From: Homoserinimonas sp. OAct 916
Lineage (GTDB): Bacteria; Actinomycetota; Actinomycetes; Actinomycetales; Microbacteriaceae
Direction of reading: 5' to 3'
NCBI RefSeq assembly: GCF_003260275.1
Contig: NZ_QJHB01000005.1
Coordinates: 1-64,000, forward strand
DNA length: 64,000 nt
Shown here: piece after piece, positions 23,565 through 37,304 of the stretch
Layout of the letters: each line of letters starts with the position of its first letter
Position numbering within the stretch: position 1 is the first letter of the stretch
Program-made: the position numbers and the translations under genes
Notes under the pieces: generated by a model
Database searches by the model: none
Told to the model about the DNA's origin: nothing
Seen by the model: only the letters and a program-made list of their open reading frames with translations

Positions 23565-25727
23565 TCACTTCCAGCCGCGCCCGATTGCGGTGCCCACACG
23601 CAGACCATCCTCGAACGCGGCGACCGCGTTCATGCCATCAATGCGCCTGGCCCCGCCGATCACGGTGTGGGGGATGTTTGTACCCGCCAGTGCCCGGGCG
23701 GGCTCGCGCAGGGATTCCTGGCCGGCGGCCAGCACCAGGGTGTCGGCCTCGACCAATTCTTCGTTGCCGTCCGCAGAAATCCAGACTCCGCGCGGTTCGA
23801 CACTGAGATAATCGACACCGGTCAGGGTGCGCACTCCGGCCGCCCGGATCGTCTGCACCACCGCCCACCTGGTGGTCACGCCCATTCCGCGGCCGATCGA
23901 TCCGCTGCGGCGCATGAGAGTGATCTGCCTGGCTGGCCTGGCCAGCGGCTGCGTCGAATCGGGGTCGTCCGAAACGCGGGCCCGGGCGCGAAACTCCCGG
24001 CGCCTGTTCGCTGACCCTGGTGCCTGATACCCGTATCGACAGCCATCGGCGCACTCCACCAACAGATGTGCCAGATCGACGCCGATCCCGCCGGCTCCGA
24101 TGATCGCCACCCGTTCGCCGATGGCATCCGGGTCACGAAAGGCCGTGGCGTAGTCGACCATCTTCACCTCGTCGCCACCCGGCAGCCAAACCTCGCGCGG
24201 ACGCACCCCCGAGGCGATGATCACGTGATCGAATTCGGCGACCTGCGCGGCCTCGTTGACCCGCGCATTCAGCAGCACCTGCACGCCGAGTCGTTCCAAT
24301 TCGTTCTCGAAGTACCGCACCGTCTGAAGAAAGTCGGCCTTGCCGGGCACCATGCCAGCCATCAAGAACTGACCACCGATGCGCGCGTCGGCCTCGAACA
24401 GGGACACCCGAGCACCCGCTGCCGCCAATGCGCGGGCTGCCTCCATCCCTGCAGGGCCGGCACCGACCACGGCGACCGCGGGGCCGGTGCGGCTGATAGA
24501 CCTGGCTGGCTCAGGCTGTGGCGCGGGTACCTCGAACTCCCGTTCACGTCCGGCGCGCGGATTGACCAGGCATGAAACCGGCTGCGTGCCGAACGACCGG
24601 TCGATGCAGGCCTCGTTACAGCCGATGCACGTGTTCACGAGCTGTTGCCGGCCGCTGAATGACTTTGCCACGATCTCGGGGTCGGCAAGAAAGGGGCGGG
24701 CCATCGAGATGAGATCGGCGTGGCCGGCAGCAAGGATGGTCTCGGCCTGCTCCAGCTTGTTGATGCGCCCGGAGGCGATCACCGGTTGCGTGCGGCCCGC
24801 ACTTCGCAGCACTCCACGGATGCGTGACGCCGTGTCGACCCAGATGCCGTGCGGTACCAGGGTCTGCACGGTCGGAACCCGCGACTCGTGCCAGCCGATG
24901 CCGATATCGAGGGCATCCGCTCCGGCCGCGACGAGTGTGAGCGCCTGGTCGTCAACCTCGGCCTCCGTGGACGAGCCGGGCATCAGATCATCACCGGACA
25001 GGCGCACCAGGAGCGGGAGGATGCCGATCGCTGCCCTGACCGCGGTGACCACGGCGACCGGGAATGCCAGCCTGCGCCCGGCGTCGCCACCCCAGCGGTC
25101 CTTTCTGCGGTTGGTCAGCGGGGACACGAACTGGTTGAGCAGGTATCCTTCTGAACCCATCACCTCGACCGCGTCGAAGCCGAGGCGAGCGGCGTGCTCC
25201 GCACCTCGGGCGAAATCAGCGATGGTCTCCCGAAGGTGGTGTTCGTCAAGTGCAACCGGGGTGCGTCGTGAGAATGTGCTGTAGACGGCTGACGGTGCAA
25301 CCGCGTCGAGGCCTTCGTCGGTGGGCAGGGCATAGCGGCCGGCGTGGAAAAGTTGCAGCGCGATCTTTCCCCCAGCGGCGTGCACCGCGTCGACGACGAC
25401 GGCCAGGCGTTCCTGGTGGCGGGGTTCGTTGATCAGCATGTAGCCGGGACCGCCGGCGCCCTCGCGGTTCACAGCGGCCCCGCCGGTGACGATCAGTGCG
25501 GTGCCGCCGGCCACCCGCTCGGCATAGAACGCGGCAAGGGCCTCACCGTCGTCGACGGTCTCGAGGTTGAGATGCATGGAACCGGTCATGATGCGGTGGG
25601 GGAGAGCAAGGGTTCCGATGGTGACCGGGGACCTGGCGTAGGGGAATTGCGCTTGCGGAGTCTGGGCATGTGGAGCCTGGCCGGTGATCGGTTCACCTGC
25701 CGTCTCGGCACTGCCTGCCGCAGTCAC
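23565..25727 (-). CDS. 2,4-dienoyl-CoA reductase-like FMN/Fe-S/FAD oxidoreductase
   Basis: A 720-residue enzyme of the FadH/old-yellow-enzyme group. The N-terminal TIM barrel (about 30-370) has LFHAGRYA, SPLTNRRKDRWGG and SMARPFLADPE; the Fe-S cluster cysteines are in CIGCNEACIDRSFGTQPVSC; the C-terminal half has an FAD site (VVGAGPAGMEAARAL) and a second nucleotide site (AIIGAGGIGVDLA). It reduces conjugated C=C bonds of acyl-CoA-type substrates. Last gene of the four-gene operon, overlapping the upstream SDR by 4 nt. In the proposed cyclohexanecarboxyl-CoA pathway it would reduce a cyclohexadiene or cyclohexene intermediate. Confidence 0.88.
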   Translation of the reverse strand: MTAAGSAETAGEPITGQAPHAQTPQAQFPYARSPVTIGTLALPHRIMTGSMHLNLETVDDGEALAAFYAERVAGGTALIVTGGAAVNREGAGGPGYMLINEPRHQERLAVVVDAVHAAGGKIALQLFHAGRYALPTDEGLDAVAPSAVYSTFSRRTPVALDEHHLRETIADFARGAEHAARLGFDAVEVMGSEGYLLNQFVSPLTNRRKDRWGGDAGRRLAFPVAVVTAVRAAIGILPLLVRLSGDDLMPGSSTEAEVDDQALTLVAAGADALDIGIGWHESRVPTVQTLVPHGIWVDTASRIRGVLRSAGRTQPVIASGRINKLEQAETILAAGHADLISMARPFLADPEIVAKSFSGRQQLVNTCIGCNEACIDRSFGTQPVSCLVNPRAGREREFEVPAPQPEPARSISRTGPAVAVVGAGPAGMEAARALAAAGARVSLFEADARIGGQFLMAGMVPGKADFLQTVRYFENELERLGVQVLLNARVNEAAQVAEFDHVIIASGVRPREVWLPGGDEVKMVDYATAFRDPDAIGERVAIIGAGGIGVDLAHLLVECADGCRYGYQAPGSANRRREFRARARVSDDPDSTQPLARPARQITLMRRSGSIGRGMGVTTRWAVVQTIRAAGVRTLTGVDYLSVEPRGVWISADGNEELVEADTLVLAAGQESLREPARALAGTNIPHTVIGGARRIDGMNAVAAFEDGLRVGTAIGRGWK

Positions 25728-26587
25728 GACGAAGCGTGCGGCAAGTCATCGGGCCGGGTGCCGTGGGTTGGCCGCTCCGGCAGCCGGAGCGGATCGCTGG
25801 TGTCGTGGTAGTACGGGGGTGCGGCCACGGTCATCCCGCCGTCGACGGCCAGCACCTGGCCGGTGATGTAGCCCGCCTTCTCGGAGAGCAGAAACTCGAT
25901 CGCGTTCGCCATGTCATCGACGGTGCCGGCCCGACCAAGCGGGATGGCCGCCAACACGGTCTCCACCGGGGCCATGCCGGGCATCGAATAGAAGTAGTGC
26001 AGAGAGTCCGATTCGATCAGTCCGCCGTTCACCGCGTTCACCGTGATGCCGTAACCGGCGAACTCAACGGCCATGAAGCGCACGAACGACTCGATCGCGG
26101 CCTTGTACGACCCCAGCGCCGCGTACGTGGCGAAGGCGCGCGTGGAGCCGTAGCTGGAGACGGCCACGATCCTTCCGCCGTGATCCATCAGCGAGACCGC
26201 CTGCTGGGCTCCCAGCACGAACGGGCGCACGTTCATGCCGTAGGAACGATCAAGATGGTGGATCTTCAGGTCGAGAATCTTCCTGAATGCCGACGCCGCG
26301 GCGTTGTTGATGAAGTGATCGAGCCTGCCGTACCGGTCGGCGACCTCGTCGAAAAGCCGCATGATGTCTTCCGGGTTCTCCATATCAGCCTGCACGGCGA
26401 ACCCGCCCCCGCCCAGCCGTACCGCCTCAGCGACCACCTCGTCGGCGAGGTCTTTGTTGGTGCGGTAGTTGACCACGACGGAGGCGCCCTGGGCTGCCAA
26501 GAGGAGGGCCAGTCGGCGTCCGATTCCCCGGGACGACCCGGTGATCACCGCAACCATGTCCCGGCGGCTCGCATCCGTTGTGGTCAT
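25724..26587 (-). CDS. SDR enoyl reductase, ChcA/FabL-like (Y-X6-K)
   Basis: A 287-residue SDR. It has TGSSRGIGRR (17-25), NNAAASAF (94-101), VAVSSYGS with the catalytic-region serine (144-145), Y155 and K162 with six residues between them, then VDGGMTVAAPP near the end. The Y-X6-K spacing is typical of FabI/FabL enoyl reductases. Size and context fit 1-cyclohexenylcarbonyl-CoA reductase (ChcA) of ansatrienin and phoslactomycin producers, which performs enoyl reductions on the way to cyclohexanecarboxyl-CoA; this assignment is inference. Overlaps its neighbours on both sides by 4 nt. Confidence 0.82.
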   Translation of the reverse strand: MTTTDASRRDMVAVITGSSRGIGRRLALLLAAQGASVVVNYRTNKDLADEVVAEAVRLGGGGFAVQADMENPEDIMRLFDEVADRYGRLDHFINNAAASAFRKILDLKIHHLDRSYGMNVRPFVLGAQQAVSLMDHGGRIVAVSSYGSTRAFATYAALGSYKAAIESFVRFMAVEFAGYGITVNAVNGGLIESDSLHYFYSMPGMAPVETVLAAIPLGRAGTVDDMANAIEFLLSEKAGYITGQVLAVDGGMTVAAPPYYHDTSDPLRLPERPTHGTRPDDLPHASS

Positions 26588-27771
26588 GGTTGGTCCTTTC
26601 GATCACGAGCCCGTTCGAACACGTCGTGGGCGACAACCGTCTTCTGGATCTCGTTGGTGCCCTCCTCGAAGCGCTGGGCGCGCGCGTCTCGGTACACCCG
26701 CTCGATCGGCTCCGACTTCATGTAGCCCCGGCCGCCGTGCACCTGGAGGGCCTTGTCGGTGACCCGGGTGAGCATGTCGACGGCAACCATCTTCGCCATC
26801 GATGACAGGGCGCCCGCACGGTCGGTTCCGCGTTCCCATTCGTCGGCGGCGTGCAGCACCAGTGCCCGGGCCGCCTCGATGTCGGCCTCGTTCTCGGCGA
26901 TCATGAACGCGATCGCCTGGCGGGAGCTGATGGGCTTGCCGAAGGTGACCCGGTGCCTGGAGTAGTCGACCGCCAACTGCTGGGCACGCTGGGCGAGGCC
27001 GACACAACTCATCGCCACCGAGATACGGCTCGGGGTGAGAAACCCGCCGAGGGCAATGGTGAGTCCGTCACCTTCGGCACCGAGCCGGTTCGTTACCGGA
27101 ACCGGGGTGTCTGAGAACGTCAGGCTGGCGTGGTCGGTGCCGTGCACGCCCATTGTTCTCGAAGTGTCTTCGACTGTCACACCCGGCGCATGCCGGTCGA
27201 CCAGCAGGGCGACGGTGCCCTGTTTGCCGCTTGAGCCAGCGAGGCGGGCGAACAGGAGCCAGTAGTCGCACCTCACTCCGAAGGTGATCAGGTGTTTGCG
27301 CCCGGTGAGCAGGTAGCCGTCTTCGGCCGGGCGCGCCGTGCAGGTGATGTCGGCGCCGGAGCCGTTGTCAGGTTCGGTGAGGGTGAATGCCACCAGGATG
27401 TCGCCGCGCACCGATGGGGTCACGAACGTTTCCCGCTGCCACGGGTCGGCGTACGGGTTCATCGACCGCCAGGTGCCGTTGATCACGTGCACGAGCATGC
27501 GCACGGAGGCGTGGGTGCGGGAGAAGAGCTCCATCAGCAGCATCCACTGGCTGAAGCTCAGCCCGGCGCCACCCAGGTCGACCGGTGCTGCTAGCCCAAG
27601 AAAGCCCTCGGTCCTGAGGGCGTCAAACAGTTCTCCAGGCGCGACATCGTCAGCCTCGATCCGGCTGCCCCACAGTTCGCCGGGACCTTCCACCCATTCA
27701 CGCACCCGGTCACGGAGAACGCTGAATTCGTGCTGCACCAGCTGCTGTCCGCGGCCGTCCGGTGTCGACAT
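26584..27771 (-). CDS. Acyl-CoA dehydrogenase (cyclohexyl-CoA type, proposed)
   Basis: A 395-residue FAD flavoenzyme of the acyl-CoA dehydrogenase family. It has the FAD-binding FTLTEPDNGSGAD, FGVRCDYWLLFA, RISVAMSCVGLAQRA, LQVHGGRGYMKSEPIERVYRDAR and the catalytic base E370 in FEEGTNEIQK. It would introduce or move a double bond alpha-beta to a CoA thioester. The equivalent in ansatrienin/phoslactomycin loci is the acyl-CoA dehydrogenase called L. The ATG at 27771 lies 62 nt inside the end of the upstream fusion gene and has AGAGAGGTAGG before it. Confidence 0.88.
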   Translation of the reverse strand: MSTPDGRGQQLVQHEFSVLRDRVREWVEGPGELWGSRIEADDVAPGELFDALRTEGFLGLAAPVDLGGAGLSFSQWMLLMELFSRTHASVRMLVHVINGTWRSMNPYADPWQRETFVTPSVRGDILVAFTLTEPDNGSGADITCTARPAEDGYLLTGRKHLITFGVRCDYWLLFARLAGSSGKQGTVALLVDRHAPGVTVEDTSRTMGVHGTDHASLTFSDTPVPVTNRLGAEGDGLTIALGGFLTPSRISVAMSCVGLAQRAQQLAVDYSRHRVTFGKPISSRQAIAFMIAENEADIEAARALVLHAADEWERGTDRAGALSSMAKMVAVDMLTRVTDKALQVHGGRGYMKSEPIERVYRDARAQRFEEGTNEIQKTVVAHDVFERARDRKDQP

Positions 27772-30700
27772 TGATACCTACCTCTCTCTCATGGTCTGCC
27801 ACCACTGAGAGTCGTTGCGGGACAAACCCGGCCGCACGATCGCGCAGGATGAATTTCTGGATCTTGCCGACCGCGTTGCGCGGGATCTCATCGATCACCT
27901 CAAGTCGTTCGGGCCAGAAATACTTGGACACGCCGTTCTCGTCCAGGAACTGCTGCAGCTGCCGGAAGGTCAGGCGTTTGTCCGGGGCCAAGGTGATGAA
28001 TGCACAGGCACGTTCACCGAGCCGGGGATCCGGCATGGCCACGATCGCCACATCGCTGACGGCATCATGGGTGTACAACAGTTGTTCGATCGAGGCGACC
28101 GGGATCTTCTCGCCTCCCCGGTTGATCACGTCACGTACACGGCCGGTGATGCGAAGGAAGCCACCGTCGTGGAGGGTGGCCAGGTCGCCGGTGCGGTACC
28201 AGCCGTCGGAGGTGAACACTTCGGCGGTGAGATCGGGACGTTCCAGGTAGCCGTCGAATACTGTGGGGCCGTTGACCTCGAGGTTGCCCTCGACACCTGC
28301 TGGGAGCACCGACCCGCTGTCATCGGTGATCCGCAACTGCACTCCTGGCAGGGCGCGGCCTTCGGTGCCCCAGACCTTTGTGGACTCATCAAGCGGGGTG
28401 GCCAGGGTGGCAAGCCCGGTCTCGGTCGTGCCGAAGGCGCCGCAGACCATGGTCTGAAGCGTGCGGGTGGCGCGTTCGGCGAGCACTCGGGGAACGGCGG
28501 CGCCGGTCGCGACGAAGATCCGCAACGTGCGCGGTGGGGGAGCGCCCTCGGCCACGGCCTGCACCAGGTCGGACAGGAACGGCGTCGCTGCTTGGACAAA
28601 CGTGCCTTCCCACCGGTTCAACACCTCGAGGGCACGACGCGGATTCCAGGTCCCCTGCACGATCTGGGGTGACCCGAGAGCGAATGCCAACCACATGCCG
28701 TAGAGGAACCCGGTCTGGTGGGCCAGCGGAGACGGCACGTAGATCACATCATTGGCATTCAGGCCGAGGTGCTCGATCTCCATCTGCACGGCGCGGCTCA
28801 GGGTGCGATGCGTGTGCACCACGAGTTTCGGTTCTCCGGAGGTGCCCGAGGTGAACAGCAGTTGCGCGGGGTCGTCTGGGTTCGGCTCCACGGCTTCGAT
28901 TCGAGCGCGGTCGACGATGGCTTCGGACATCGCGCGGTGCCAGCCGTGCCACTGCACAGTCGCATGCTGGCACTCCGGCAGGACGCGCGCAGTGCCTGGA
29001 GTGTCGTGCATCACCACCACGTGTTGCAATGAAAACGGCTCCGGGTCCGGGGAACCGGGAGCCCGGCTGGCGGCCGCCACGGCGGCCTCATCGAGCATGC
29101 GTGCGATCTCATGGGCATGGGCGCGCGCACGGAAGTTGTCGATGACCACGAGCACGCGTGCGCGTGAGCGCCTCAGCGCGAAAGACACCTCATGGGTGCG
29201 GAAGATCGGCATGATCGGGCAGATCACCGCACCGATGCGCATGGCCGCCGCCGCCACGATCACGAACTCCTTGTCGTTCGGCAATTGCACAGCCACCCGG
29301 TCACCGGGCTCAACCCCCAAGCTCAACAGTAGAGCTGCAACGCGGTCCACTTTCTCGTCGAGTTCACCCCAGCACACGTGGACGGTGCGGTCCCAACGCG
29401 CATCCACGACGGCAAGGGCGTGCGGCCGAGCGTTCGCCCAGTGCCGGATCCACCCGGGCCCAGTCATCGTTTCTGCGGTGGCCGGGGTCTCCGCAGGGCC
29501 AACCGCGTGCAGCGGGCGGCCCGCAGAGGTCGCCGGCCTCTTCTCGACCTGAAAATCGAGACCCATGGTCTGCATGGCCTCGATGAACCGCGGGTAGGAG
29601 ATGCGGTAGGCGTTCGGGTAGGTGAGGGTGGAGCGCCCGGTGGCCGCCGATGCTGCGACCGCCAACGACATCAACACCCGGTGATCGTTGAACGAGGACA
29701 GGTGGGCGTTGTCCAACTGCTCCACCCCGCGGATGAGCAGGTTGCCACCGTCGACCGTGACGTCGGCGCCCATGCTGTTCAATTGCAGCATTGCAGTCAC
29801 CCGGTCGGATTCCTTCAACCGCACGTGCTCCACGTTGCGCAGGATGCTTTCACCACGAGCGGTCGCCGCCAGGGTCGACAGGATTGGCAACATGTCCGGA
29901 AGGTCGCGGCAGTCGACGTCGATCGGCTCGAGGGGCCCACCGTCGTGGCTCACGCGCAACCCACCACTTCGCCGTTCGACACGCATGGGCAGGCCCATAC
30001 CTCGGATCACGTCGAGGAAGCCGGCTTCGGGATGGTCGTAGTCGGTTGCGCGCATGCCGGGCATTCCGGTGAGCAACACGTCGGCCGGGTGCAATGCGGC
30101 CACAGCCAGGCCGAACGCGGCCGAGCCGATGTCGGGCGGCAGGGCGAGTTGGGCGGGAACGGCGTGCTGGTTCGGTTTGATGTCAAAACGACGCCAATCC
30201 GCCGATGCGGTCACGATCAGCCCGAATTGGCGCATCATCGTCACCGTCAGTTCGACGTAGTTGCGCTCATTCAGCTCGCCATTGACCACAATCGTGGTGT
30301 GCTTCGTCGCGAACGGTGCCACCAGCAGCAACGATGAGATCCACTGGGAGAGCGTGCCGCTGATGTGCACGACGCCTCCGCGAGGGCGTCCGGGGGTAAC
30401 GGTGATGGGCGGGCGGTCATCCGCCGACTTCGTCTCGATTCCCATCTCGCCCAATGCGCGCAGCAGGGGACCAATGGGTCGGTGCTCGAAGTAGCGCTGC
30501 CCGGTGATTGTCAGTGGTGTTTCGCATAGCGCGGCCAGCCCGACCATGAAGTAGAGGGTGGTGCCGGAACTGCCCACCGAGAGGGCATCACTGGCGGGCC
30601 GGTATCGGCCTCCGTGCACGAGCATCGTGTCGCCGTGGATGTCGATGTCTGCGCCGAGTTGTTTCAGTAGTTGCACCGTGTAGTGCACGTGCGTGGCGTC

Positions 30701-30835
30701 ACTCAGCCCGGTGATCGAACTGGTGCCCCGGGCCAGCGAGGCGAGGATCAGTGCCCGGTGGGCGTGATACTTCGAGTTCGGTACCTGAACGGTGCCGGTG
30801 ACCTTTGCTGATGTGCCGACGACTGCGAGATGCAT
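27710..30835 (-). CDS. EPSP synthase-like / acyl-CoA ligase fusion (cyclohexanecarboxylate pathway)
   Basis: A 1041-residue fusion. Residues 1-430 form an EPSP-synthase (AroA) fold: PNSKYHAHR (K22, with Tyr instead of the usual Ser after Lys), GSSGTT (88-93), HRP (118-120), SQW (Q164), LKESDR (K341) and NDHR (383-386). A Pro/Ala linker (about 432-458) joins an AMP-forming ligase: FTSGTSGEPK (661-670), YRTGDLA, GRVRDVINRGGEK, and catalytic lysine in RNAVGK (K991). The AroA-like part is diverged and probably acts on shikimate itself; the ligase makes the CoA ester. Matches the JK protein of phoslactomycin loci as I recall it. First gene of the operon; GGATGGGA precedes the ATG. Confidence 0.88.
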   Translation of the reverse strand: MHLAVVGTSAKVTGTVQVPNSKYHAHRALILASLARGTSSITGLSDATHVHYTVQLLKQLGADIDIHGDTMLVHGGRYRPASDALSVGSSGTTLYFMVGLAALCETPLTITGQRYFEHRPIGPLLRALGEMGIETKSADDRPPITVTPGRPRGGVVHISGTLSQWISSLLLVAPFATKHTTIVVNGELNERNYVELTVTMMRQFGLIVTASADWRRFDIKPNQHAVPAQLALPPDIGSAAFGLAVAALHPADVLLTGMPGMRATDYDHPEAGFLDVIRGMGLPMRVERRSGGLRVSHDGGPLEPIDVDCRDLPDMLPILSTLAATARGESILRNVEHVRLKESDRVTAMLQLNSMGADVTVDGGNLLIRGVEQLDNAHLSSFNDHRVLMSLAVAASAATGRSTLTYPNAYRISYPRFIEAMQTMGLDFQVEKRPATSAGRPLHAVGPAETPATAETMTGPGWIRHWANARPHALAVVDARWDRTVHVCWGELDEKVDRVAALLLSLGVEPGDRVAVQLPNDKEFVIVAAAAMRIGAVICPIMPIFRTHEVSFALRRSRARVLVVIDNFRARAHAHEIARMLDEAAVAAASRAPGSPDPEPFSLQHVVVMHDTPGTARVLPECQHATVQWHGWHRAMSEAIVDRARIEAVEPNPDDPAQLLFTSGTSGEPKLVVHTHRTLSRAVQMEIEHLGLNANDVIYVPSPLAHQTGFLYGMWLAFALGSPQIVQGTWNPRRALEVLNRWEGTFVQAATPFLSDLVQAVAEGAPPPRTLRIFVATGAAVPRVLAERATRTLQTMVCGAFGTTETGLATLATPLDESTKVWGTEGRALPGVQLRITDDSGSVLPAGVEGNLEVNGPTVFDGYLERPDLTAEVFTSDGWYRTGDLATLHDGGFLRITGRVRDVINRGGEKIPVASIEQLLYTHDAVSDVAIVAMPDPRLGERACAFITLAPDKRLTFRQLQQFLDENGVSKYFWPERLEVIDEIPRNAVGKIQKFILRDRAAGFVPQRLSVVADHEREVGINVDTGRPRTAAGAARIQRSP

Positions 30836-30929
30836 GCTGAATGTCCCATCCAGTTGCTCCGTCCAGCCCGGAGGCTGCGATAACTTTCACAGTACCCGGT
30901 CGGGTCTTTTTCGGCAGGGGAGAGGCCGC

Positions 30930-31307
30930 TCAGAGGCTGATTGCGAACCAGAAGCCGAGGCCGGCTGCCAGAATCGCGAGCACCATCATTCCGAGTCCAT
31001 GAACCAGTGCCGCGGCTGCCCGTTCCTCTTGAAACAGTCGAACGGTTTCGAAGGTGGCGGTGCTGAAGGTGGTGAACCCGCCGAGAAAGCCGGTGCCGAT
31101 CACAAACAGCCATTCGTCTGGCAGCGTGCCGACCAACGCGATCCCGGTGAGAAAGCCGAGCAGGAGGGAGCCGGTGATGTTGATCACGCCGGTTTCCAGC
31201 GGAAACGTGTGTACGCGCAAACCCCGCAATACGCCATCAATGAAGAATCGGCATCCGACGCCGATTCCGCCGGCGACGGCCGCGGCGATGAACAGCAGCG
31301 GAGTCAT
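30930..31307 (-). CDS. crcB: Fluoride channel CrcB/Fluc, subunit 1
   Basis: A 125-residue four-helix membrane protein. It has the pore motif NITGSLLLGF (43-52) and GGFTTFSTATFE (76-87) with the phenylalanines that line the fluoride path. Two Fluc paralogues side by side are usual in Gram-positive bacteria, where they may form antiparallel heterodimers. The ATG at 31307 overlaps the stop of the second crcB by 4 nt; the open frame extends upstream in antisense-like sequence and is discounted. Confidence 0.92.
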   Translation of the reverse strand: MTPLLFIAAAVAGGIGVGCRFFIDGVLRGLRVHTFPLETGVINITGSLLLGFLTGIALVGTLPDEWLFVIGTGFLGGFTTFSTATFETVRLFQEERAAAALVHGLGMMVLAILAAGLGFWFAISL

Positions 31308-31765
31308 CGTGGGCCACCGCCTGTAAGAGTGGGGCCAGTCCTGGTGCCGGGGCCCAGAAGGCCGGCGCACAGTAGCCCCGCCCATGTTGCCAGTACGCCG
31401 AGGATGAGGGTACCGAACGCGTAGGCGAGCCCGAGCCCGACATTGTCGCCGACAATCAACAGCACGGTGTCTGTTGCGAAAGCACTGTAGGTGGTGAAAC
31501 CACCGAGCGCGCCGGTGCCGACCGCCAGTCGGAGGCGATGGGCGGTGACGTCGCCGGCGGAGCGGCGTGCGAGCCTCCCGAGAAGAAACGCAAGCAGGAA
31601 GGCACCAATCACGTTGATGGTGGCAATGGCCACCGGAACGGGGCCTGCGGCCGGGATCATCAGACCGAGGGCCTCCCGGCCGGCGGTGCCAAGGATGCCG
31701 CCGAGCGCCACCAACCCCAGATTTCCCCAATGCCGGTGCGCAGGTGGTGTGCGTCTGGGCGTCAT
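31304..31765 (-). CDS. crcB: Fluoride channel CrcB/Fluc, subunit 2
   Basis: A 153-residue paralogue of the preceding channel. It shows RWG-like HWGNLGLVALGGILGTAGREAL, NVIGAFLLAFLLG and GGFTTYSAFATD. A hydrophilic N-terminus of about 13 residues precedes the first helix; the ATG at 31765 is preferred over one 54 nt upstream. A TTGACA lies 23 nt before the start within a 14-nt repeat. No crcB riboswitch was recognised. Confidence 0.9.
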   Translation of the reverse strand: MTPRRTPPAHRHWGNLGLVALGGILGTAGREALGLMIPAAGPVPVAIATINVIGAFLLAFLLGRLARRSAGDVTAHRLRLAVGTGALGGFTTYSAFATDTVLLIVGDNVGLGLAYAFGTLILGVLATWAGLLCAGLLGPGTRTGPTLTGGGPR

Positions 31766-36641: not shown

Positions 36642-37304
36642 TCATCGAGCCGAGGTGCATACACACAATTCGTTGCCCTCGGCGTCGGCCATCACCCACC
36701 AGGAGGGTGCGTGTTCGTCGGTGACCAGGGTGCCGCCGGCCGCAACGATCGCGTCGACCCGGCCGCGGGCATCCTGGGTGGGAACATAGACGTCGAGATG
36801 GATACGACTGCGTTCTGTGCGCGGCGGATCCATCTTCTGGAACCAGATCTTCGGGCCACTCCCCCGCGGGTCGCGCAGCTCCACGTCGCCGTCACCGTCC
36901 AGGTCTTCAATGTAGTCGCAGCCCACCCGCCAGAAATCGCGGATCGCGTCGGCGTCCGAGCAGTCAATTGCGATCTCGTAGTTGGTCGGCCGTGTGGTGT
37001 TCGCCTTCGCGCCGGCACGGTGCGCCAGTTGCTCGATCTCCTCGGCCAGGCGCAGGTCGCGACCGGTCACTCCCCCGGCGTCATGGGAGCTCACGGTGAA
37101 CGCTATCTGGCCGTAGCCGAGGCTCACATCGGGGTGGTGGTTGGCGCGTTCTGCAGCTTCCGCGACCTCGGCCACCAGCTGCGCAGCCCGGGCGAAGTCG
37201 TCGGTGGAGTAGGACGCGTACAGCGCACCGTCGAGGTGCACGAATGCGCCGGTCAGGGCATCGCGGGTCTGGGCTGGAGAGAGTACGGCGTCTGCAGGGA
37301 TCAT
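36642..37304 (-). CDS. Pterin-4a-carbinolamine dehydratase/VOC-domain fusion
   Basis: A 220-residue two-domain protein. Residues 15-100 match pterin-4a-carbinolamine dehydratase (PhhB/PCD): the ERANHHPDVSLGYGQIAFTVSSHDAGGVT block contains the paired histidines and the conserved acidic and tyrosine-type positions. Residues 105-220 form a glyoxalase-like (VOC) domain: YEIAIDCSDADAIRDFWRV, WFQKMDPPR, RIHLDVYVP and GNELCVC. The dehydratase recycles oxidised tetrahydropterin; the VOC part may bind a related small molecule. ATG at 37304 with GTAGGGGA directly before it. Confidence 0.88.
   Translation of the reverse strand: MIPADAVLSPAQTRDALTGAFVHLDGALYASYSTDDFARAAQLVAEVAEAAERANHHPDVSLGYGQIAFTVSSHDAGGVTGRDLRLAEEIEQLAHRAGAKANTTRPTNYEIAIDCSDADAIRDFWRVGCDYIEDLDGDGDVELRDPRGSGPKIWFQKMDPPRTERSRIHLDVYVPTQDARGRVDAIVAAGGTLVTDEHAPSWWVMADAEGNELCVCTSAR

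What the first reader, a model, noticed from the sequence alone, without database searches (positions are those of the whole stretch)
27710..30835. Diverged EPSP synthase fused to an AMP-forming ligase
One 1041-residue chain carries an AroA fold with K22, Q164, K341 and the NDHR segment, but with Tyr after the first lysine where EPSP synthase has Ser. The same chain then carries a complete acyl-CoA ligase. The fusion would channel a shikimate-derived ring acid directly to its CoA ester. The AroA domain likely performs an elimination or other reaction on shikimate, not enolpyruvyl transfer.
Basis: partly seen in the sequence, partly recalled or inferred. Interest (0 to 1): 0.75.

Follow-up and report, generated by a model that had tools for sequence, protein, structure and literature searches.

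The report
Shikimate-to-cyclohexane enzyme fusion, not AroA
A bacterial gene that databases would call a normal aromatic-amino-acid enzyme is instead, most likely, a two-headed enzyme starting a side route that turns shikimate into a saturated six-membered ring used to build lipids or antibiotics.

Summary
In detail: one intact 1041-codon ORF (minus strand, 27710-30835) joins an EPSP-synthase-fold domain to an AMP-forming acyl-CoA ligase, with K22, Q164, K341, NDHR and Tyr23 as stated. It is not the housekeeping enzyme: the genome has its own AroA and MurA elsewhere. It opens a tight operon (fusion, acyl-CoA dehydrogenase, ChcA-like Yx6K reductase, OYE-type reductase) that recurs in Streptomyces, Arthrobacter, Microbacteriaceae, Eremiobacterota and gammaproteobacterial MAGs. 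In Streptomyces seoulensis it sits beside AHBA (ansamycin) genes; the ansamycin ansatrienin carries a cyclohexanecarboxyl group made from shikimate. Best reading: cyclohexanecarboxyl-CoA biosynthesis. In 103 family domains the 3-phosphate pocket of EPSP synthase is rebuilt (R100 to Tyr, S197 to Glu, S169 to Leu) while K22, D313 and E341 stay, which fits elimination on unphosphorylated shikimate. Against that, most PEP-phosphate contacts are also kept, so the reaction itself is inferred, not shown. The curated aroA model is reached by all 45 fusions scanned, so automatic annotation probably misnames them. CHC-CoA cassettes are known since 2000; whether the published one has this fusion could not be checked.

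The parts
27710..30835 (-). Fusion ORF, 1041 aa: AroA-like domain plus AMP-forming acyl-CoA ligase; first gene of the operon
29552..30835 (-). AroA-like (EPSP-synthase-fold) domain, residues 1-428; passes TIGR01356 cut-off but with the 3-phosphate pocket rebuilt
30767..30772 (-). codons of Lys22-Tyr23 (E. coli Lys22-Ser23)
   Evidence: K 103 of 103, Y 103 of 103; Ser in 24 of 24 AroA
30551..30553 (-). codon of Tyr95 (E. coli Arg100, a side-chain ligand of the shikimate 3-phosphate)
   Evidence: Y 103 of 103; Arg in 24 of 24 AroA; role from PMC12256929
30266..30268 (-). codon of Glu190 (E. coli Ser197, a side-chain ligand of the 3-phosphate); proposed general acid for loss of the 3-hydroxyl
   Evidence: E 103 of 103; Ser in 24 of 24 AroA; catalytic role inferred
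29447..29551 (-). linker, residues 429-463, partly low confidence in the model
   Evidence: pLDDT under 50 at 434-448
27830..29446 (-). acyl-CoA ligase domain, residues 464-1002; nearest curated model cyclohexanecarboxylate-CoA ligase
   Evidence: (TIGR03208 442 bits, cut-off 792)
26584..27771 (-). acyl-CoA dehydrogenase family gene, 395 aa; overlaps the end of the fusion ORF
   Evidence: co-occurs with the AroA-like domain in the same 42 of 398 genomes
25724..26587 (-). SDR enoyl-reductase-like gene (ChcA-like by proposal), 287 aa, Y155-x6-K162; 4-nt overlap with the gene before
23565..25727 (-). Old-yellow-enzyme / dienoyl-CoA-reductase-like gene, 720 aa; 4-nt overlap with the gene before

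Best explanation
The locus is a cyclohexanecarboxyl-CoA (CHC-CoA) biosynthesis operon. The N-terminal domain is an EPSP-synthase-fold enzyme that has lost the 3-phosphate pocket. It binds free shikimate and catalyses a 1,4-conjugate elimination (loss of the 3-hydroxyl and a C6 hydrogen), giving 3,4-dihydroxycyclohexa-1,5-diene-1-carboxylate. Glu190 would protonate the leaving hydroxyl; Asp314, Glu342 or Lys22 would take the C6 proton. The fused ligase makes the CoA thioester. The SDR (ChcA-like), the OYE-type reductase and the acyl-CoA dehydrogenase homologue then finish the route; by formula, shikimate to CHC needs three dehydrations and four two-electron reductions. CHC-CoA serves as starter for omega-cyclohexyl fatty acids here, and for polyketides in Streptomyces. 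Shown: fusion, operon, conservation, co-occurrence, separate AroA, switched residues, ansamycin-gene context of an orthologue. Inferred: the elimination, the residue roles, the order of steps, the product and its use in this organism.
For: Operon: of 80 related loci, 72 have the ACAD, 57 the SDR and 61 the OYE within reach; of the 65 with 5.2 kb or more downstream, 43 have EPSP-LIG-ACAD-SDR-OYE in that order, 12 lack the SDR, 7 the OYE, 3 have less. Co-occurrence: in the same 398 genomes the ACAD (E<=1e-100) is in exactly the 42 that have the AroA-like domain; the SDR at 60% identity or more in 41 of the 42. Six Arthrobacter/Cellulomonas genomes whose operon lacks the SDR have one 65-71% orthologue elsewhere. 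Product: the S. seoulensis A01 orthologue lies next to AHBA-synthase-like, oxidoreductase and class II DAHP synthase genes and large PKS-like ORFs; a type I PKS lies upstream in S. pacificus L053; a FabF-type KAS II gene lies in the flanks in 31 of 80. [2-13C]shikimate labels the CHC part of ansatrienin (PMC8788734); a CHC-CoA cassette replaces CHC feeding (PMC4581413). Active site: R100Y, S197E, S169L, S23Y in 103 of 103, K411I in 102 of 103; 6 of 12 fixed switches fall among 24 active-site residues (P 2e-5).
Against: No activity was measured. Of the four PEP-phosphate contacts named in PMC12256929 three are kept (R124, E341, T97 as Thr or Ser), and R344 and R386 too, so a PEP or phosphate role cannot be excluded. 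K340, a 3-phosphate ligand, is kept. Y23 and PDIGSAAF were search patterns, so Y23 is partly pre-selected there (it also holds in the loci from the genome search). The published S. collinus cassette could not be compared. No CHC or cyclohexyl lipid is known from this organism; the window has no recognised KAS or PKS next to the operon. The role of the ACAD homologue is unexplained. Two Streptomyces second copies (L079, L091) have the fusion without the other genes.
Confidence: 0.62

Rival explanations
1. The N-terminal domain works on shikimate-3-phosphate and eliminates phosphate (a phospho-lyase), giving the same diene; the ligase and the rest act as in the best explanation.
For: Phosphate is a better leaving group than hydroxide; K340 is kept in 103 of 103, and K22, R27, S170, Q171 too. 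S3P is made by every shikimate pathway (general knowledge).
Against: Arg100 and Ser197, both 3-phosphate ligands in PMC12256929, are Tyr and Glu in 103 of 103; a carboxylate there should repel a phosphate.
Confidence: 0.15
2. The domain is still an enolpyruvyl transferase: it moves enolpyruvate from PEP onto unphosphorylated shikimate, and a later enzyme removes it as pyruvate.
For: R124, E341, T97 (T or S), R344, H385, R386, K22 and D313 are kept; the domain passes the aroA equivalog cut-off.
Against: K411 to Ile in 102 of 103 and Val in one, D49 to His or Gln in 103 of 103; no pyruvate-releasing enzyme was recognised in the operon; it would waste PEP.
Confidence: 0.1
3. A plain second EPSP synthase, or the housekeeping one, fused to a ligase by accident.
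For: Same fold (Foldseek TMt 0.87 to E. coli EPSPS 3fk0); passes the TIGR01356 cut-off in the window protein.
Against: Separate AroA in 20 of 20 fusion-bearing genomes examined; fixed active-site switches; family one clade apart from AroA, support 99; operon and co-occurrence.
Confidence: 0.03
4. The operon makes an unsaturated or aromatic ring-CoA (cyclohexenyl-, cyclohexadienyl- or hydroxybenzoyl-CoA) rather than CHC-CoA, or degrades a ring acid.
For: 12 of 65 loci lack the SDR and 7 the OYE in the operon; the ligase and ACAD score below the cut-offs of the cyclohexanecarboxylate models; the ACAD role is unclear.
Against: SDR orthologue present elsewhere in 6 of 6 such genomes tested; neighbouring PKS, KAS and AHBA genes point to building, not breakdown.
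Confidence: 0.1

Closest known systems
CHC-CoA biosynthetic cassette of Streptomyces collinus (Cropp, Wilson, Reynolds 2000; seen here only as a citation in PMC4581413; the species is recalled)
   Same: Gene set for making CHC-CoA without CHC feeding; our orthologue in S. seoulensis lies beside AHBA (ansamycin) genes, the class to which ansatrienin belongs (PMC8788734)
   Different: Its sequence was not held, so gene content, names and whether it has the fusion could not be compared; here the operon lies in an ordinary chromosomal region, not a natural-product cluster
EPSP synthase, AroA (EC 2.5.1.19)
   Same: Fold, length, K22, R27, R124, Q171, D313, E341, R344, H385, R386; TIGR01356 312 bits over cut-off 287
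   Different: S23Y, R100Y, S169L, S197E, K411I, D49H/Q; fused to a ligase; a separate AroA is present
FkbO-type chorismatases (PMC4685789, passages)
   Same: Make 3,4-trans-dihydroxycyclohexa-1,5-dienecarboxylate, the same kind of product proposed here
   Different: Start from chorismate and release pyruvate; no chorismatase was recognised in this operon
Cyclohexanecarboxylate-CoA ligase (TIGR03208)
   Same: Best curated match of the ligase half of the window protein, and matched by 45 of 45 fusions scanned
   Different: 442 bits against a cut-off of 792; that model belongs to a breakdown pathway (my recollection)
Omega-cyclohexyl fatty acid synthesis in Alicyclobacillus and Curtobacterium pusillum
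   Same: Cyclohexyl ring from shikimate (De Rosa 1972, seen as a reference title in PMC3035248); Curtobacterium is, by recollection, of the same family, Microbacteriaceae (fatty acid noted in PMC3426160)
   Different: No Alicyclobacillus or named Curtobacterium genome could be reached, so the genes there were not compared

Membership tests
EPSP synthase (AroA) | Fold and curated family model (TIGR01356) | tested here: met
   312 bits, cut-off 287; Foldseek TMt 0.87 to 3fk0
EPSP synthase (AroA) | Side-chain ligands of the shikimate 3-phosphate (E. coli R100, S197, K340) | tested here: not met
   R100 to Y and S197 to E in 103 of 103; K340 kept; ligand list from PMC12256929
EPSP synthase (AroA) | PEP ligands (D49, T97, R124, E341; K411) | tested here: inconclusive
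   R124, E341 kept 103 of 103, T97 as T 77 / S 26; D49 lost 103 of 103, K411 lost 103 of 103 (I 102, V 1)
EPSP synthase (AroA) | Catalytic K22, D313, E341 | tested here: met
   103 of 103 each
EPSP synthase (AroA) | EPSP synthase activity / complementation of aroA | not testable with these tools
   wet-lab test
AMP-forming acyl-CoA ligase (ANL) | Both Pfam domains and core motifs | tested here: met
   PF00501, PF13193; GTTE, YRTGD, GRVRDVINRGGEK and PRNAVGK motifs; P-loop FTSGTSGEPK followed by Leu instead of Gly
Cyclohexanecarboxylate-CoA ligase (TIGR03208) | Curated cut-off | tested here: not met
   442 bits, cut-off 792
CHC-CoA biosynthesis cassette | Enoyl-CoA reductase of ChcA type in the same operon | tested here: inconclusive
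   SDR with Y-x6-K, FabL-like; the S. collinus ChcA sequence was not held, so the name rests on recollection
CHC-CoA biosynthesis cassette | Orthologous operon inside a cluster for a CHC-bearing product | tested here: inconclusive
   S. seoulensis operon beside AHBA genes and large PKS-like ORFs; that its product is an ansatrienin is inferred
CHC-CoA biosynthesis cassette | Gene-for-gene match to the S. collinus cassette | not tested
   neither the paper nor the sequence was held
CHC-CoA biosynthesis cassette | CHC-CoA or cyclohexyl lipid made by the organism | not testable with these tools
   needs lipid or metabolite analysis

The most novel reading that the evidence does not exclude
The AroA-like domain is a PEP-independent shikimate 1,4-dehydratase: an enolpyruvyl-transferase fold turned into a lyase by exchanging the phosphate clamp (R100, S197, S169) for Tyr, Glu and Leu, with the new Glu as acid for the departing 3-hydroxyl. 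It would be the missing first enzyme of the shikimate-to-cyclohexane route, spread over at least three phyla, and routinely misnamed aroA.
Probability: 0.5. Interest if true: 0.72.

Novelty: new member of a known kind. Interest (0 to 1): 0.5.

Why it matters
How shikimate is opened towards cyclohexyl rings has been studied since the 1970s (De Rosa 1972, a reference in PMC3035248). This family offers one protein on which the first two steps can be assayed at once, and a short list of residues that should separate lyase from transferase chemistry in the EPSP synthase fold. It also warns that the curated aroA model names these proteins EPSP synthase: all 45 fusions scanned reach E<=1.6e-85, which I calculate to equal the cut-off. 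That matters for counts of aroA copies and for predictions of glyphosate response. The conserved operon is a genome marker for likely makers of cyclohexyl lipids and cyclohexyl-primed polyketides.

Tried and rejected
Housekeeping AroA: rejected (separate AroA, switched residues). Degenerate gene: rejected; the window fusion departs from 95%-conserved columns at 8 places (median of 45 rows 4, most 12). Loss of the reductase in Arthrobacter/Cellulomonas: rejected, the SDR is elsewhere in the genome. Plasmid spread: no match in 72,556 plasmid records at E<=1e-60. Rfam on the window: one tRNA only. Literature: eight searches of the open-licence library listed no paper on the fusion, but the three CHC papers looked up by id are not held, so this says little about print. 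Alicyclobacillus could not be reached. L058, listed as not fused, looks like a frameshift inside the ligase of a MAG. Single-linkage gene cluster c0 (KAS II) mixes FabF-like subtypes, so '31 of 80' means a FabF-family gene, not one orthologue. Structure: the model has pTM 0.60; I draw nothing from the arrangement of the two halves.

Full report
What is there. The ORF lies on the minus strand, 27710-30835, 1041 aa. Residues 9-421 match the EPSP synthase family and 464-991 the AMP-binding and C-terminal ligase domains. The predicted structure has mean pLDDT 83.7, pTM 0.60. Its matches in the PDB are aryl-acid adenylating enzymes and acyl-CoA ligases for the second half and EPSP synthases, best the S3P-bound E. 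coli form 3fk0 (TMt 0.87), for the first.

Surroundings. Three genes follow on the same strand with overlaps of 62, 4 and 4 nt: acyl-CoA dehydrogenase family, SDR of the FabL type with Y155-x6-K162, and an OYE-type flavin reductase. Upstream lies crcB; the wider window looks like ordinary chromosome. The same genome has AroA on contig C51 and MurA on C125.

Relatives. A scan of named genomes with the AroA-like domain gave 188 relatives, the best 80 kept: Arthrobacter, Sinomonas, Cellulomonas, Microbacterium, Streptomyces, Actinoplanes, Microlunatus, Solirubrobacterales, and Eremiobacterota and gammaproteobacterial MAGs. 73 of 80 are fused; 7 are not, of which one looks like a frameshift. Of 65 loci with at least 5.2 kb downstream, 43 have all five parts in one order, 12 lack the SDR, 7 lack the OYE, 2 have only the fusion and 1 has the AroA-like part, ligase and ACAD only. 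In the window's family (it holds Microbacterium sp. STN6, so Microbacteriaceae by inference) 42 of 398 genomes have the domain, 32 in an open frame of 991 codons or more and 10 in a shorter one. The ACAD is in exactly the same 42; the SDR at 60% identity or more is in 41 of them, with 9 weaker matches of 48-54% elsewhere. In a phylum-wide draw of 396 genomes 5 have it, the window's own included; the other four, 50-52% identical, have it in a short open frame. Of those four I fetched three; in each the ligase, ACAD and SDR stand next to it and the motifs SKYHAH, Y95, LSQW, NE, DHPE and YRISYP are kept. So the fusion is common but not obligatory.

Lineage. In a tree of 68 rows the 40 family rows form one clade (SH-aLRT 99) with a stem of 2.28 changes per column, apart from 24 AroA (80) and 4 MurA (quick tree, long branches flagged).

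Active site. 103 family domains (102 distinct) were aligned with 24 AroA, namely E. coli and 23 from fusion-bearing genomes; 4 of 27 control loci were dropped as MurA. PMC12256929 (passages read) names the S3P phosphate contacts of tobacco EPSPS as Lys358, Arg105, Ser206 and the Ser179 amide, and the PEP phosphate contacts as Glu359, Arg131, Asp50 and Thr102. In E. coli numbering the family has R100Y and S197E (103 of 103), K340 kept, S170 kept, S169L; for PEP, E341 and R124 kept, T97 as T 77 / S 26, D49 lost. K22, R27, D313, R344, H385, R386 are kept in 103 of 103; K411 is Ile 102, Val 1. Of 392 compared columns 12 are fixed in both groups but different; 6 of the 12 lie among 24 active-site residues (hypergeometric P 2e-5). 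Caution: SKYHAH and PDIGSAAF were search patterns, so Y23 is partly selected there; R100Y, S197E, S169L and K411I were not patterns.

Product. In S. seoulensis A01 the operon lies directly beside a DegT-type aminotransferase, a Gfo/Idh/MocA oxidoreductase and a class II DAHP synthase, the AHBA set (the parallel to rif genes is partly recalled), with large PKS-like ORFs within 40 kb (judged by eye from their starts, not scanned). A type I PKS lies upstream in S. pacificus. PMC8788734 (passages) states that labelled shikimate marks the cyclohexanecarboxylic acid part of ansatrienin. PMC4581413 (passages) cites a CHC-CoA cassette that makes doramectin without CHC feeding. A FabF-family KAS gene lies in the flanks in 31 of 80 loci. 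In genomes whose operon lacks the SDR an orthologue of 65-71% identity lies elsewhere (6 of 6 tested). [quoted passage not shown]

Mechanism. That the route starts with a 1,4-conjugate elimination to a 3,4-dihydroxycyclohexa-1,5-diene acid is my recollection of labelling work; PMC4685789 (passages) shows that this compound is a known starter acid made from chorismate by FkbO. In EPSP synthase the residue at 197 holds the phosphate on O3, so a Glu there is well placed to help a hydroxyl leave and badly placed to hold a phosphate. This is inference. The kept PEP-side residues are the main weakness.

Annotation. All 45 fusions scanned match TIGR01356 at E<=1.6e-85, which I calculated to equal its cut-off; the window scores 312 against 287. 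They would probably be named EPSP synthase.

Verdict. Real, widespread, functional-looking; best seen as the first enzyme of CHC-CoA biosynthesis. The pathway is known; the chemistry of this domain appears open, though the key papers could not be read.

Noticed in passing
window 30930-31730 (-): A CrcB-family (fluoride exporter) gene lies just upstream of the operon; the 30751-31113 ORF beside it has no Pfam match.
   Followed up: partly
L079, L091: Streptomyces albus and S. sulphureus carry a second copy of the fusion without the ACAD, SDR and OYE genes, next to a large regulator-like gene; in L079 also a P450. The other copy in each genome (L064, L082) has the full operon.
   Followed up: partly
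L153 8381-9652, L154, L155: Stand-alone, about 50% identical forms of the domain in another actinobacterial family, beside separate ligase, ACAD and SDR genes: a possible unfused ancestral state.
   Followed up: partly
residues 267-270 of the fusion (DHPE), window 30026-30037 (-): An Asp-His-Pro-Glu motif kept across the family differs from AroA (E. coli Gln271 becomes His268 in 102 of 102 distinct rows); role unknown.
   Followed up: no
L018-L022, L053, L085: Seven of 65 loci lack the OYE gene in the operon; whether it lies elsewhere in those genomes was not tested.
   Followed up: no
window 36645-37304 (-): Fusion of a pterin-4a-carbinolamine dehydratase and a glyoxalase-like domain.
   Followed up: no
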